A stretch of DNA of 64,000 nt. It comes from Demequina iriomotensis (GTDB lineage Bacteria > Actinomycetota > Actinomycetes > Actinomycetales > Demequinaceae). This document shows positions 3,110 through 8,415 of this stretch, piece after piece; position 1 is the stretch's first letter; each line of letters opens with the position of its first letter. The notes beneath the pieces are model-generated. The model saw only the letters and a list, made by a program, of their open reading frames with translations, made no database searches and was not told where the DNA came from. Position numbers and translations under genes: made by a program. The DNA is taken from positions 558,001 to 622,000 of the forward strand of contig NZ_BBME01000009.1 in assembly GCF_000971395.1 (NCBI RefSeq). Reading direction: 5' to 3'.

Positions 3110-3916
3110 ATGGCCCGCATCGAGCTGAAGACCCGCGCGCAGATGCGGGTGATGGCGCACGCGGGCGTGATCGTCGAGCGCGCGCTGGCGGCCGCGAAGG
3201 CGGCCGCCGTGCCGGGCGCGACGACGGCCGAGGTCGACGCCGCGGCCGCCCGCGTCATCGCGGAGGCCGGTGCGACGTCGAACTTCCTCGGGTACCACGG
3301 GTTCCCGGCCGTGAGCTGCATCTCCGTCAACGAGGAGGTGGTCCACGGGATCCCCGGCGACCGCGTCATCGTCGAGGGCGACGTCGTGTCGATCGACTGC
3401 GGCGCGATCGTGGACGGCTGGCACGGGGACAGCGCCCTCAGCTTCATCGCGGGCGACCCGCTCTCGAAGGCCGACGTCGCGCTCGTGAAGGAGACCGAGC
3501 GGTCGCTGTGGGCCGGCATCGCCGCGCTCGCCGGCGCGACGCGCGTGTCCGAGGTCGGCGCCGCCGTCGAGGACGTCGCCGATGCGGCGGGACTGCACCC
3601 GCTCGAGGGCTACGTGGGCCACGGCATCGGCACGGCCATGCACATGGAGCCCGACGTCCCCAACTATCGCACCCGCGGGCGCAGCCCTCGGGTCCAGCCC
3701 GGCATGTGCCTCGCGATCGAGCCGATGCTCGTGATCGGCACCTCGGACTCCGCGGTGCTGAACGACGAGTGGACGGTCGTGTCGCTCGACGGTTCGCGCG
3801 CCGCCCACTGGGAGCACTCGGTCGCGGTCCACGAGGACGGCATCTGGGTGCTGACCGCCGCGGACGGCGGCGCCTCCCGCCTCGCACCCCTTGGCGTGGT
3901 CCCCGTCGCCCCCTGA
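3110..3916 (+). CDS. map: Methionine aminopeptidase, type I
   Basis: Removes the N-terminal formyl-depleted methionine from nascent proteins. 268 residues. All five metal ligands are visible: D96 and D107 (SIDCGAIVDGWHGDSA), H171 (GHGIG), E204 (LAIEP) and E235 (HWEHSVAV), plus the conserved H79 (VVHGIP). The ATG lies 8 bases after the adk stop. The last 20 or so residues are Gly/Pro-rich and probably disordered. In many Gram-positives infA follows at once; here three repeat-protein genes intervene. Confidence 0.97.
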   Translation: MARIELKTRAQMRVMAHAGVIVERALAAAKAAAVPGATTAEVDAAAARVIAEAGATSNFLGYHGFPAVSCISVNEEVVHGIPGDRVIVEGDVVSIDCGAIVDGWHGDSALSFIAGDPLSKADVALVKETERSLWAGIAALAGATRVSEVGAAVEDVADAAGLHPLEGYVGHGIGTAMHMEPDVPNYRTRGRSPRVQPGMCLAIEPMLVIGTSDSAVLNDEWTVVSLDGSRAAHWEHSVAVHEDGIWVLTAADGGASRLAPLGVVPVAP

Positions 3917-4009
3917 CGGGCGCATTCGAGCCCTCGCCCGCATCGTCCCTGGTGTGGCGCATCTCTCACCGGTTCACGCGACCGTTACATGAGCGCCACG
4001 CGGGGGCAA

Positions 4010-4053
4010 AGCCGACGGGTTAGCGTCGGCTCAGCCGGCGACTCGGACGCCGG
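4010..4053. promoter_or_regulatory. Two consecutive hairpins between map and the first repeat-protein gene
   Basis: AGCCGACG and CGTCGGCT pair around GGTTAG (4010-4031). CCGGCG and CGCCGG then pair around 7 bases (4035-4053). They lie 20-60 bases before the next ATG. They could terminate the spc transcript or structure the leader of the following gene. TAGCGT at 4021-4026 could be a -10 box but no good -35 is seen. Confidence 0.45.
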
Positions 4054-4071
4054 CGTGCTGAGGAGGGGACC

Positions 4072-4644
4072 ATGGCACGTGGGTTCAACTATGCCCCGGG
4101 TGCGAGCGATGAGGTCGAGGAGGCGGCGGCAGCGGAGCTGTCGAAGGAGCGGATGATGGCGCTCGGGGCGTCGCGCAACCCTGTGGTGCGCGAGGCCATC
4201 GCGGCGCGGCCCGAGTGCCCGTTCGGGCTCATGGTGACGCTCGCTCACGACTCGGCGGCCCCGGTGCGCGCGGCGATGGCCGGCAACCCTCGGGTGCTGC
4301 ACTCGCTGCTCGAGCACCTGTCCCGGGACCGCCAGGAGTCGGTGCTGCTCGCCGTGGCGCGCAACCCGGTCACCACGCCGGACATCCTCGACTCGCTCGC
4401 GGGCCACCGTCGCCCGGAGGTGCGCGACGCCGCGACGGCGGCGCTCGAGGCGGCCGAGGCTCGTCCGGGAGCCGACCGTCACATGCCCGAGCTGCGCGAC
4501 CGGGTGTTCGACCGCTCGCACGAGCGCCGCGACCAGATGCTCGCGCGGGCCGCCGCGATCGAGGAGCCGCCCGCGCCCGCACCTGCGCCCCGGCCCACCC
4601 GCACCGCACCGGTCCGCGGCTTCCTGCCGCCGGTCGACGCCTAG
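4072..4644 (+). CDS. 26-residue-repeat (variant leucine-rich/HEAT-like) protein, paralogue 1
   Basis: Hypothetical cytoplasmic protein of 190 residues. Residues about 40-125 hold three in-phase 26-residue units, the first beginning VVREAIAARPECPFGLMVTL, each with a pattern VR.A.A.....P...L..LA.D. This resembles the bacterial variant leucine-rich repeat/HEAT-type helical solenoid. No signal peptide or membrane segment is present; the C-terminus is Pro/Ala-rich. A strong Shine-Dalgarno (GAGGAGGGG) precedes the ATG. It is the first of three tandem paralogues placed between map and infA. Family function is unknown; protein binding is a reasonable guess for a solenoid, nothing more. Confidence 0.8.
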   Translation: MARGFNYAPGASDEVEEAAAAELSKERMMALGASRNPVVREAIAARPECPFGLMVTLAHDSAAPVRAAMAGNPRVLHSLLEHLSRDRQESVLLAVARNPVTTPDILDSLAGHRRPEVRDAATAALEAAEARPGADRHMPELRDRVFDRSHERRDQMLARAAAIEEPPAPAPAPRPTRTAPVRGFLPPVDA

Positions 4645-4754
4645 CCCGACACCCAGGATTCGCCCGCGCGTCACCGGCGCGACACCCGCCGGACAGCCGA
4701 TGCTCACCGGCGCGCCCTAGCCTCTCGCTACCCGAGGGGCGAGGGAGGTGCGCG

Positions 4755-5384
4755 ATGGGGGACGACGGCTGGTCGCGTGCGTTCATGGCGGCGTCCGGTG
4801 TCCCCGTCGCGAGCGAGCGCGCGGACGACGGGTCGCGAGCCCTGGTGAACGAGGCCCGCGCGGACGGGCTCGACCGTGCGCGGATCCTCGCGCTCGGGGC
4901 GCACCGCGTGCCCGAGGTCCGCGAGGCGATCGCGGCGCGGTCGGACTGCCCGATCGGCATGCAGGCCACGCTCGCGCACGACCGCCGCGCCTCGGTACGC
5001 GTGGCGCTGGCGGCGGGTCGTGGCCTGGCGGCCGGCGTCGCGGCCGAGCTCGCCGAGGATCGCGAGCTCGCCGTGGTCAAGGCGCTCGCCCGCAACGCCC
5101 GCACACCCCGCGCGGTGCTCGAGGTGCTCGCGGCGAATCGGCGCGAGGACGTCGCACGGCTGGCGCGCCGCGCGCTCGACGGCGTCCAGCTCGACGCCCG
5201 CCACCGCGCGGCCGAGGACCCGGCGCTGAGCGTCCGCGGACCGGCGCCGGGCGAGGCGGCCGCCTCGCGGGACGCGCAGGCGGCGTCGCCCGTGGGGGAC
5301 CGGACCGCTCGCGTGCTCGCGCCGCGGCCCCAGGTGGGACGGCGTGACGGCGCGTCGGGCGCCGCTCGGGGCTCGCCGGCGTGA
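4755..5384 (+). CDS. 26-residue-repeat protein, paralogue 2
   Basis: 209-residue paralogue of the preceding gene. Residues about 53-140 carry three 26-residue units (the first starting EVREAIAARSDCPIGMQATL), then a long Ala/Pro/Arg-rich tail with no predicted fold. The ATG was chosen for its Shine-Dalgarno GGGAGG 5-6 bases upstream; a much longer frame upstream is only the shadow of paralogue 1. A candidate -10 (TAGCCT, about 4719-4724) lies in the 110-base gap. Shared CP(F/I/M)G and LAHD residues in unit 1 of all three proteins mark them as recent duplicates. Function unknown. Confidence 0.78.
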   Translation: MGDDGWSRAFMAASGVPVASERADDGSRALVNEARADGLDRARILALGAHRVPEVREAIAARSDCPIGMQATLAHDRRASVRVALAAGRGLAAGVAAELAEDRELAVVKALARNARTPRAVLEVLAANRREDVARLARRALDGVQLDARHRAAEDPALSVRGPAPGEAAASRDAQAASPVGDRTARVLAPRPQVGRRDGASGAARGSPA

Positions 5385-5439
5385 TCCCCGCGCCCGGTGT
5401 GTCGGCTGCATGACGGGATGTCTGATTCGTCACACGGGT

Positions 5440-5469
5440 TTGAGCGACGGTGCCGTGCGGCGGTAGACA
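5440..5469 (+). promoter_or_regulatory. Candidate promoter of repeat paralogue 3
   Basis: TTGAGC (5440-5445), an 18-base spacer, then TAGACA (5464-5469), ending 33 bases before the GTG start. This resembles the TTGAGA-17-TATAGT promoter upstream of infA. Confidence 0.5.
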
Positions 5470-5502
5470 CGTGCCACAACGAGGAGTGCGGGGAGGCGCA
5501 GC

Positions 5503-5808
5503 GTGGTGGTTCCGGCAAGCGGTTCGTCCGAGGATGTCATGCAGGCGCTCGATCCCGAGATCACCGGCTCGGCCCTGCTCCCGCTCGCGGTCCACCGCGA
5601 CGCCGCCGTGCGTGCGGCGGTCGCCGGTCGCAGCGACTGCCCGATGGGCGCGCTCGTCTCGCTGGGGCACGATTCGAGCCTCGAGGTGCTGAGCGCGCTG
5701 CTCGCGAACCCCCGCACGCCGTCCTCCGTGGTGCGACGGCTCGCCGACCACCGCGACCCGCGGGTCGCGGGCGTCGCGGTGCAGCGCCTGCGCAACGCCT
5801 TCCTCTGA
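5503..5808 (+). CDS. 26-residue-repeat protein, paralogue 3 (short)
   Basis: 101-residue protein that is almost entirely repeat: units begin AVRAAVAGRSDCPMGALVSL and EVLSALLANPRTPSSVVRRL, with a partial third. It lacks the N- and C-terminal extensions of its two neighbours, so it looks like the minimal form. The GTG start is chosen because GGGAGG sits 7 bases upstream. It has its own likely promoter and is followed by the infA promoter region. Function unknown. Confidence 0.75.
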   Translation: MVVPASGSSEDVMQALDPEITGSALLPLAVHRDAAVRAAVAGRSDCPMGALVSLGHDSSLEVLSALLANPRTPSSVVRRLADHRDPRVAGVAVQRLRNAFL

Positions 5809-5914
5809 CGGCCGGGCGGAGGGCCGGGCCCTCGACGGAGACCGCCCAGCGGAGTACCCTGGCGGCACGATGCACCGCCTGGGCCGGCTGCCGCGCGATG
5901 GGGCGCGGCCGCGC

Positions 5915-5943
5915 TTGAGAGCTCGCGAAGATTGCCGTATAGT
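5915..5943 (+). promoter_or_regulatory. Strong housekeeping promoter for infA operon
   Basis: TTGAGA (5915-5920), a spacer of exactly 17 bases, then TATAGT (5938-5943). A leader of about 50 bases follows to the infA ATG, containing a GCGTTTTTGCGCGC stretch. Confidence 0.8.
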
Positions 5944-6000
5944 TTTCCGTTGGGCGTTTTTGCGCGCCCGCATCCCTGTCAATCAACGTTAGCGGAGTTC

Positions 6001-6222
6001 ATGGCTAAGAAGGACGGCGTCATCGAGGTCGAGGGCGTGGTGGTCGAAGCACTGCCGAACGCATCGTTCCGTGTGGAGCTGACGAACGGGCACCTCGTGC
6101 TCGCTCACATCTCCGGCAAGATGCGACAGCACTACATCAGGATCCTCCCGGAGGACCGCGTGGTGGTGGAGCTCAGCCCCTATGACCTGTCCCGCGGCCG
6201 CATCGTCTACCGCTACAAGTGA
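6001..6222 (+). CDS. infA: Translation initiation factor IF-1
   Basis: Binds the 30S A site during initiation. 73 residues, the standard length, all S1-like OB fold: [20 protein letters not shown], then [19 protein letters not shown] and [15 protein letters not shown]. The ATG gives the canonical N-terminus with AGCGGAG upstream; the frame is open further upstream but that part is leader. First gene of the alpha operon; rpmJ follows after 48 bases. Confidence 0.98.
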
Positions 6223-6270
6223 GTCGTCGACACGGCGCGTCCGCGTGCCTGATCGACGCAGGAAAGAACC

Positions 6271-6384
6271 ATGAAGGTTAAGCCCAGCGTCAAGCCCATC
6301 TGCGACAAGTGCAAGGTGATCCGACGCAATGGCCGAGTGATGGTCATCTGCGAGAACCTGCGCCACAAGCAGCGTCAGGGCTAG
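6271..6384 (+). CDS. rpmJ: Ribosomal protein bL36
   Basis: 37-residue large-subunit protein L36, the smallest ribosomal protein. It starts [19 protein letters not shown]. The zinc ligands C11, C14, C27 and H32 are all present, so this is the zinc-binding (C+) form. GGAAAG lies 7 bases before the ATG. Sits between infA and rpsM as usual. Confidence 0.97.
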
Positions 6385-6424
6385 ACACACCCGAGAACAT
6401 CCTCGCTCGACATATGCATCAAAC

Positions 6425-6444
6425 CCCCGGCTCGGAGGCCGGGG
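6425..6444 (+). terminator. Hairpin between rpmJ and rpsM
   Basis: CCCCGGC and GCCGGGG pair around a 6-base loop, 40 bases after the rpmJ stop. A weak terminator or attenuator would reduce read-through from infA-rpmJ into rpsM. The remaining gap to rpsM (about 70 bases) shows no clear promoter. Confidence 0.5.
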
Positions 6445-6512
6445 CCCGCACAAGACCTTAAGCGGGGCGTTCGAGCGTCAGACCTCCGACTACTGATGGA
6501 GTAGAACCAGAA

Positions 6513-6881
6513 ATGGCACGCATCGTCGGTGTCGACATCCCGCGCGACAAGCGCATGGTGATCGCACTTACCTACATCTACGGCGTCGGCCGCACCCGCG
6601 CCGAGCAGATCCTCGCAGCGACCGGCATCAGCCCGGACCTGCGCGTCAAGGACGCGAACGACGACCAGCTCGTCGCGATCCGTGACTACATCGAGGCCAA
6701 CTTCACCGTCGAGGGCGACCTGCGCCGCGAGGTGGCCGCCGACATCCGCCGCAAGGTCGAGATCGGCAACTACCAGGGCCTCCGCCACCGCCGCGGCATG
6801 CCCGTCCGTGGTCAGCGCACCAAGACCAACGCCCGCACCCGCAAGGGCCGCAAGAAGACCGTCGCCGGAAAGAAGAAGTAA
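6513..6881 (+). CDS. rpsM: Ribosomal protein uS13
   Basis: Small-subunit head protein that contacts the P-site tRNA and bridge B1. 122 residues. [30 protein letters not shown] is the canonical start; the basic tail [24 protein letters not shown] ends it. rpsK follows 3 bases after the stop. Confidence 0.98.
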
Positions 6882-6884
6882 GAC

Positions 6885-7274
6885 ATGGCCGCTCCTACTC
6901 GCAAGCCGCGCAAGAAGATCAAGAAGACCGTCGCGCACGGTCAGGCGCACATCAAGTCCACCTTCAACAACACGATCATCTCGATCACGGACCCCTCGGG
7001 CGCCGTCGTGTCGTGGTCGTCGTCGGGCCAGGTGGGCTTCAAGGGCTCGCGCAAGTCGACCCCGTACGCCGCGCAGATGGCCGCCGAGGCCGCCGCTCGC
7101 CGCGCCACCGAGGCCGGCATGAGCAAGGTCGACGTGTTCGTCAAGGGCCCGGGCTCGGGCCGCGACACCGCGATCCGCTCGCTCACGGCCGCCGGCCTCG
7201 AGGTGACCTCCATCAAGGACGTCACCCCGCAGGCGCACAACGGCTGCCGCCCGCCGAAGCGCCGCCGCAACTAG
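6885..7274 (+). CDS. rpsK: Ribosomal protein uS11
   Basis: Platform protein of the 30S subunit, 129 residues. Motifs [21 protein letters not shown] and [15 protein letters not shown] are diagnostic, and the C-terminus [15 protein letters not shown] is intact. rpoA follows directly: rpsD, which sits here in many bacteria, is absent and must lie elsewhere, as in several actinobacteria. Confidence 0.98.
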
Positions 7275-7308
7275 CACGCCCGCGCGGGTGAGCCCGCGCT
7301 CTCGGTCG

Positions 7309-7332
7309 CGGGCCGATGCATGCATCGGCCCG
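7309..7332. promoter_or_regulatory. Perfect 24-bp palindrome between rpsK and rpoA
   Basis: CGGGCCGATGCA is followed at once by its exact reverse complement TGCATCGGCCCG. As RNA it would fold into a hairpin; as DNA it is a perfect two-fold site. It is placed 35 bases after the rpsK stop and about 100 before rpoA, so it could attenuate transcription or bind a dimeric regulator. Confidence 0.6.
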
Positions 7333-7428
7333 TGGCCACCCCCATTTCCAGCTTCTGGCCCCTTCCGGACCGATCCCGGCAGGGAACCCTCGAGCATCAG
7401 ATAGCGGATGCTCGGAAAGGAAACAACC

Positions 7429-8415
7429 GTGCTGATCGCACAGCGTCCCACGCTGACCGAGAAGGTCATCTCGGAGAACCGCTCGCAGTTCTCGCTCAAG
7501 CCGCTCGAGCCGGGCTTCGGCTACACGCTCGGCAACTCGCTCCGCCGCACGCTCCTGTCGTCCATCCCGGGCGCGGCCGTGACGTCGGTGCGCTTCGAGG
7601 GCGTCCTCCACGAGTTCACCACCATCGACGGGGTGAAGGAGGACGTGACCGAGATCCTGCTCAACCTCAAGAACCTCGTGGTCTCGTCGGAGAACGACGA
7701 GGCCGTCGTGATGTACCTGCGCAAGTCGGGCGCGGGCGTCGTCACCGGTGCTGACATCCAGCCCCCGGCCGGCGTCGAGATCCACAACCCGGATCTCCAC
7801 ATCGCGACCCTCAACGCGAAGGCGAAGTTCGAGGTCGAGCTCACGGTCGAGCGTGGTCGTGGCTACGTCCCCGCGGCGATGAACAAGAGCTACGACGCGG
7901 AGATCGGTCAGATCCCCGTCGACTCGATCTACTCGCCCGTCCTCAAGGTGACCTACAAGGTCGAGGCCACCCGTGTCGCGCAGCGCACGGACTTCGACGA
8001 GCTGGTCATCGACGTCGAGACCAAGAACTCGATCTCGCCGCGTGACGCCGTCGCGTCGGCGGGTGCGACGCTCGTCGAGCTGTTCTCGCTCGCGCGTGGC
8101 CTCAACGAGGCCGCCGAGGGCATCGAGATCGGCCCGTCCGAGACGGACGAGTCGCTCGAGGAGGACTACAACCAGCCGATCGAGGAGCTCAACCTCACGC
8201 AGCGGTCGTACAACTGCCTCAAGCGTGAGGGCATCCACACCGTGGGCGAGCTCACCGCGCGTTCCGAGGCGGACCTCATGGACATCCGCAACTTCGGCCA
8301 GAAGTCGATCACCGAGGTCAAGGAGAAGCTCGCCGAGCTGGGCTTCTCCCTGAAGGACGGCGCCGTCGAGTACGACAGCAGCTCGTCCGTCTACTTCTCG
8401 GGCAGCGACGAGTAA
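7429..8415 (+). CDS. rpoA: RNA polymerase alpha subunit
   Basis: Scaffold for RNA polymerase assembly and contact point for activators. 328 residues. The N-terminal domain begins [21 protein letters not shown] and includes [22 protein letters not shown]. The C-terminal domain (from about residue 250) shows [23 protein letters not shown] and the [18 protein letters not shown] helix-hairpin-helix. The GTG at 7429 gives the actinobacterial N-terminus and has AAAGGA 7-8 bases upstream; an in-frame ATG 21 bases earlier is less likely. Confidence 0.97.

What the first reader, a model, noticed from the sequence alone, without database searches (positions are those of the whole stretch)
4072..5808. 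Three tandem 26-residue-repeat paralogues inside the map-infA interval
One of the most conserved gene junctions in bacteria is interrupted by three genes of one family, of decreasing complexity: 190 residues with tails, 209 with tails, 101 almost pure repeat. Each unit 1 keeps D/E-C-P-x-G and L-x-H-D. Placement among ribosomal genes, own Shine-Dalgarnos and at least one own promoter suggest growth-linked expression. This could be an undescribed helical-repeat system, for example ribosome- or nascent-chain-associated, though nothing shows that directly.
Basis: partly seen in the sequence, partly recalled or inferred. Interest (0 to 1): 0.65.

Follow-up and report, generated by a model that had tools for sequence, protein, structure and literature searches.

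The report
Demequina LRV repeat-protein trio beside infA
Three small neighbouring genes in an actinobacterium (Demequina) encode members of a known helical-repeat protein family; they are real, ancient in the genus and under selection, and their conserved flexible tails suggest they act together as binding scaffolds, but nothing ties them to the ribosome.

Summary
In detail: three paralogous ORFs (190, 209, 101 aa; 26-residue repeats) lie between map and infA. The "undescribed helical-repeat" part does not: these are leucine-rich-repeat-variant (LRV) proteins (Pfam PF25591/PF01816), and the only solved relative is 1LRV, top hit by sequence profile and by fold. The host is Demequina. All 36 other Demequina genomes tested keep at least one of the genes in this interval, 24 of 37 keep all three orthologues, and a sister genus has the third gene at secY-adk-LRV3-infA. 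So this is no recent insertion. LRV3 is constrained like Map (dN/dS 0.10-0.19); LRV1/2 less (0.28-0.47). In the closest relatives each gene has its own conserved promoter region. Against a ribosome role: low codon adaptation, individual gene losses, another LRV gene fixed at xseA/xseB, and a map-infA junction that often opens in this order. New detail: LRV1 ends in a conserved motif (RTAPVRGF) on a disordered tail; in one clade LRV1 lacks it and LRV3 instead begins with PFRGF on a long disordered tail. I favour a small LRV scaffold set joined by linear motifs; the mechanism is inferred.

The parts
4072..4644 (+). LRV1: 190-aa LRV solenoid (four 26-residue units, residues about 23-126) with N-terminal motif MARGFNYAPGAS, Pro/Ala-rich C-terminal tail and C-terminal motif RTAPVRGF
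   Evidence: (PF25591 36.5 bits, cut-off 27)
4600..4623 (+). codons of the LRV1 C-terminal linear motif RTAPVRGF, in a predicted disordered tail
   Evidence: conserved across most of the genus despite linkers of very different length; pLDDT 55-58; APVRGF-coding pattern occurs once in the genome
4755..5384 (+). LRV2: 209-aa basic LRV protein (four units, residues about 39-142), N-terminal W-S-R-A-x-M-A-x-S-G motif, C-terminal tail with APRP-x-V motif
5503..5808 (+). LRV3: 101-aa near-pure LRV protein (three units plus N-cap and QRLRN C-cap), the most constrained of the three; GTG start
   Evidence: (PF01816 30.5 bits, cut-off 21.6)
3972..3988 (+). conserved element GTTCACGCGACCGTTAC about 100 bp upstream of LRV1 (regulatory site, inferred)
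   Evidence: same place in the closest Demequina relatives
4020..4027 (+). TTAGCGTC, -10-like element of LRV1
   Evidence: conserved in most of the alignment; consensus-based inference
4060..4068 (+). Shine-Dalgarno of LRV1 (GAGGAGGGG)
4718..4724 (+). TAGCCTC, -10-like element of LRV2
   Evidence: identical in 10 of 10 aligned sequences
4743..4748 (+). Shine-Dalgarno of LRV2 (GGGAGG)
5419..5434 (+). conserved element TGTCTGATTCGTCACA upstream of LRV3 (operator-like, inferred); unique in the genome even with one mismatch
5440..5469 (+). sigma-70-like promoter of LRV3: TTGAGC, 18-bp spacer, TAGACA
5490..5496 (+). Shine-Dalgarno of LRV3 (GGGGAGG)
3110..3916 (+). map (methionine aminopeptidase), upstream neighbour
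   Evidence: PF00557 E=2.5e-40
5915..5943 (+). separate conserved promoter of infA (TTGAGA, 17 bp, TATAGT), so infA need not depend on read-through from the LRV genes
   Evidence: near-identical in 10 sequences
6001..6222 (+). infA, downstream neighbour

Best explanation
The three genes encode small cytoplasmic LRV (leucine-rich-repeat-variant) solenoids of the genus Demequina, the products of old duplications that were fixed at the adk/map-infA boundary. Shown: membership of the LRV family, orthology across the genus, purifying selection, separate transcription signals in the close relatives, and conserved motifs on predicted disordered tails. Inferred: they work as one adaptor or scaffold set, in which a solenoid groove binds short linear motifs such as the LRV1 tail (RTAPVRGF) and the LRV2 tail (APRPxV), and so joins the paralogues to each other or to a shared client protein. 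The place next to ribosomal genes is historical, not functional.
For: Family: PF25591 and PF01816 above their gathering scores; 27 of 30 LRV3, 22-25 of 33 LRV1 and 14-18 of 27 LRV2 orthologues match an LRV family; 1LRV is the only PDB sequence hit of the LRV3 profile (E=8e-4) and the top Foldseek hit for both models. Distribution: 36 of 36 other Demequina, sister genus G173 as secY-adk-LRV3-infA; LRV1, LRV2 and LRV3 lineages separate on the tree, though deep forks are weak. Selection: dN/dS 0.28-0.45, 0.31-0.47, 0.10-0.19 against 0.15-0.25 for Map. Joint action: RTAPVRGF is kept in most LRV1 although the linker before it varies freely; in one clade (L019, L021, L029, L045, L076) LRV1 lacks the motif and LRV3 has instead a long, disordered-looking N-terminal extension opening with PFRGF in four and PFTGF in one; evolutionary distances of the three proteins remain correlated after removing Map and SecY (r 0.26-0.44, Mantel p 0.0005-0.01).
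Against: The motif change between LRV1 and LRV3 is one event in one clade. L039 keeps the LRV1 motif but has no LRV3; L075 has LRV3 but no motif on LRV1; members of the set are lost one at a time, so no strict stoichiometric complex. Correlated rates can come from linkage. The upstream DNA elements are conserved only in the window's close subclade.
Confidence: 0.4

Rival explanations
1. Independent adaptors: the paralogues diverged after duplication and each now serves its own client; they form no joint complex and stay clustered only because they arose by tandem duplication at a permissive spot.
For: Own promoter region per gene; genomes that lack LRV1, LRV2 or LRV3 singly; different charges (LRV1 acidic, LRV2 strongly basic); the interval also hosts unrelated insertions.
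Against: Residual rate correlation among the three and the appearance of a similar motif on LRV3 where LRV1 lacks it.
Confidence: 0.35
2. Ribosome- or nascent-chain-associated factors with growth-linked expression.
For: Position between adk/map and infA-rpmJ-rpsM in all Demequina and in the sister genus.
Against: Own promoter regions and a separate infA promoter; codon adaptation at the 13th-29th percentile of window genes while rpsM, secY and map are at the 95th, 76th and 68th, although infA itself is only at the 37th; dispensable one by one; another LRV gene fixed at xseA/xseB; junction often open in the order.
Confidence: 0.08
3. Nucleic-acid-binding solenoids (HEAT-like, as AlkC/AlkD), perhaps linked to DNA repair.
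For: LRV2 is basic (median pI 10.7); a related LRV gene lies between xseA and xseB; AlkC appears far down the fold list for LRV3.
Against: LRV1 is acidic and LRV3 near neutral; many of the conserved Arg are the generic LRV V-R positions; the hit to AlkC is weak (E 1.7).
Confidence: 0.1
4. Iron-sulphur LRV proteins like the Azotobacter founder.
For: Same repeat family and fold.
Against: Each window protein has a single cysteine, in the repeat; no LRV FeS4-cluster domain was found; the Cys is not conserved in LRV1 orthologues.
Confidence: 0.02

Closest known systems
Leucine-rich repeat variant protein of Azotobacter vinelandii (PDB 1LRV; Pfam PF01816)
   Same: Same kind of repeat with V-R, P and L-A-x-D signature; only PDB sequence relative and top fold match
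   Different: Founder has an N-terminal 4Fe-4S cluster domain (established knowledge); here one Cys per protein and no such domain. Here: three short paralogues with disordered tails and conserved end motifs
Pfam LRV_2 (PF25591), Leucine Rich Repeat Variant domain
   Same: LRV1 passes its gathering score and 25 of 33 orthologues match at E<=0.01
   Different: No function is attached to the family; the tails and the clustered set are not part of the model
Large multi-repeat LRV proteins of other Actinobacteria (for example L120, L114, L115)
   Same: Same 26-residue units
   Different: One long protein of about 350-1140 residues against a set of short paralogues; no sign of this triplet outside Demequinaceae
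HEAT/ARM/alphaRep peptide-binding solenoids
   Same: Weak fold similarity below 1LRV; peptide binding in a groove is the model used for the proposed mechanism
   Different: No significant sequence homology found; Foldseek E-values above 0.03

Membership tests
LRV (PF01816/PF25591) | Curated profile score above the gathering cut-off | tested here: met
   LRV1 36.5 against 27 bits and LRV3 30.5 against 21.6. LRV2 alone falls short (11.9), but 18 of 27 orthologues match PF01816 at E<=0.01 and LRV2 is homologous to LRV1
LRV (PF01816/PF25591) | Tandem 24-26-residue units with V-R, P and L-A-x-D positions | tested here: met
   Exact 26-residue phase in all three; invariant V-R and D columns in the orthologue alignments
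LRV (PF01816/PF25591) | LRV right-handed superhelix of two short helices per unit | tested here: inconclusive
   AlphaFold gives paired short helices with high confidence and 1LRV ranks first, but Foldseek E is only 0.013 and 0.25
Azotobacter-type LRV FeS protein | N-terminal cysteine cluster binding 4Fe-4S | tested here: not met
   One cysteine per protein; no FeS4 domain match
Ribosome-associated factor | Association with ribosomes or ribosomal-protein-like expression | not testable with these tools
   Only indirect evidence: low codon adaptation, separate promoter regions

The most novel reading that the evidence does not exclude
A genus-specific three-component LRV scaffold in which paralogous solenoids are joined by a P-x-R-G-F linear motif that can move from one subunit's tail (LRV1 C-terminus) to another's (LRV3 N-terminus) during evolution: the first functional module assigned to short bacterial LRV proteins.
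Probability: 0.2. Interest if true: 0.55.

Novelty: new member of a known kind. Interest (0 to 1): 0.33.

Why it matters
The LRV fold has been known since the 1990s, and I found no functional study of short LRV proteins in the open library searched. A fixed, constrained set in a culturable genus, with motif-bearing tails, natural losses and a sister-genus single-gene state, gives a concrete way to test what short LRV proteins bind. As a claim about ribosome biology it should be dropped.

Tried and rejected
Recent insertion: rejected (36 of 36 other Demequina; sister genus). Neutral decay: rejected (dN/dS). FeS protein: rejected (single Cys). Catalytic or metal role for the D-C-P-x-G Cys: rejected, since it is the family consensus position and is replaced in LRV1 orthologues. 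A second RTAPVRGF-like protein in the genome: the APVRGF-coding pattern occurs once only. Strict LRV1-motif/LRV3 co-loss: suggestive (L025, L027 and L036 lack both) but broken by L039 and L075. Regulon of the LRV3 upstream element: no second site in the genome. Literature searches on LRV, PF01816 and Demequina gave no functional paper. NCBIfam gave no family. In some searches my infA query was one base out of frame; positions were hardly affected (one spurious infA position, for L046), and infA was searched again in frame. The dN/dS script stopped with an error after Map, so no values were obtained for SecY, InfA or RpsM.

Full report
What is there. Between map and infA the window holds three ORFs on the + strand, 4072-4644, 4755-5384 and 5503-5808. 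Their products have 190, 209 and 101 residues and share exact 26-residue units: four in the first two, three in the last. They are homologous to each other (E 1.5e-17 and 1.7e-11 for LRV1 against LRV2 and LRV3).

Family. LRV1 scores above the gathering cut-off of Pfam LRV_2, and LRV3 above that of LRV. LRV2 falls short alone, but many of its orthologues match. Across orthologues LRV or LRV_2 is the commonest match in all three sets. A profile of LRV3 finds one PDB entry, 1LRV, the leucine-rich repeat variant protein of Azotobacter (E 8e-4). AlphaFold models of LRV1 (pLDDT 84.6) and LRV3 (90.2) show paired short helices, and 1LRV is the top Foldseek match for both, with modest E-values. The D-C-P-x-G and L-x-H-D pattern is the ordinary LRV consensus. 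The founder's FeS domain is absent: each window protein has one cysteine. So the repeat is known, not undescribed.

Host and distribution. The named relatives are all Demequina, Demequinaceae or MAGs of that group. All 36 other Demequina genomes have at least one LRV gene between map and infA (in G029 the interval is broken by contig ends). All three orthologues occur in 24 of 37, the window included, and some have a fourth paralogue lineage between LRV1 and LRV2. In G173, another genus of the same family, the order is secY-adk-LRV3-infA, so LRV3 at this spot predates the genus. In other families of the order, matches are few and lie mostly in longer multi-repeat frames; with the LRV3 profile 6 of 395 genomes of the phylum other than the window's own match.

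The junction. In the order this junction is not inviolate: 12 of 19 informative genomes of other families have map and infA 138-376 bp apart, while 7 have about 1-9 kb between them. Within Demequina the interval also holds unrelated cargo, for example a signal-peptidase-like gene and TasA/camelysin-like exported proteins in L049 (named from the sequence by eye, not searched).

Selection and expression. Between the window and nine relatives dN/dS is 0.28-0.45 for LRV1, 0.31-0.47 for LRV2 and 0.10-0.19 for LRV3, against 0.15-0.25 for Map (simple Nei-Gojobori). Upstream of each gene the close relatives keep blocks at fixed distances: GTTCAC-N6-(G/T)TTAC about 100 bp before LRV1, TAGCCTC at about -33 before LRV2 (-38 in the window), and TGTCTGnTTCnTCACA at about -85 before LRV3, followed by a TTGA(C/G)-18-TAGACA-like promoter. 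These blocks are mostly not found in the more distant Demequina. infA has its own strong conserved promoter. Codon adaptation to ribosomal genes is low for all three (13th-29th percentile of window genes), unlike rpsM, secY and map; infA itself is only at the 37th percentile, so this is weak evidence. Together this suggests separate, probably modest expression rather than coupling to ribosomal genes.

Tails. LRV1 starts with a nearly invariant MARGFnYAPGAS and ends with R-T-A-P-V-R-G-F in most of the genus, though the linker before it varies freely. Both ends are modelled with low confidence, as expected of disordered tails. LRV2 ends in a similar tail with APRPxV. In a clade of five genomes LRV1 lacks the C-terminal motif, and there LRV3 is a protein of roughly 300 residues or more beginning (R/Q)xPFRGFxR (PFTGF in one), then a long Ala/Pro/Ser-rich stretch, then the LRV domain. 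This is one event, so it is suggestive only. Three genomes that lack LRV3 (L025, L027, L036) also lack the LRV1 motif, but L039 keeps the motif without LRV3 and L075 has LRV3 without it. After regressing out Map and SecY distances the three proteins still show correlated divergence (r 0.26-0.44), which linkage alone could also produce.

Second site. Another LRV gene lies, in the opposite direction, between xseA and xseB in the window's genome, in four other Demequina genomes examined and in the sister genus. LRV genes in this family are therefore not tied to the ribosomal cluster.

Conclusion. Ordinary family, unusual and well-conserved setting. Best reading: a small set of LRV adaptors, probably joined by tail motifs. 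The adaptor step and the joint action are inferred; no binding was tested.

Noticed in passing
L055:6845-7453 (-) in the window's genome (contig C14); also L057, L109, L111, L112, L113: A further LRV gene lies convergently between xseA and xseB in all genomes examined, including the sister genus; L113 has an additional LRV gene between fumC and pfkB.
   Followed up: partly
L110:4413-5246 (-) in the window's genome (contig C15): A 277-aa protein has an N-terminal CPTCASGRVC motif, a helical-looking middle and an LRV-like C-terminus.
   Followed up: no
L049 oriented 3943-8383; L047 oriented 4697-5317: Genes resembling TasA/camelysin exported proteins and (in L049) a signal peptidase sit in the map-infA interval next to the LRV genes, which marks it as an insertion spot.
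   Followed up: partly
L019, L021, L029, L045, L076: In one Demequina clade LRV3 carries a long disordered-looking N-terminal extension beginning with PFRGF (PFTGF in L029), while LRV1 lacks its C-terminal RTAPVRGF.
   Followed up: yes
window 5419-5434: TGTCTGATTCGTCACA upstream of LRV3 half-resembles a Crp/GlxR site (TGTGA-N6-TCACA) and is unique in the genome with up to one mismatch.
   Followed up: partly
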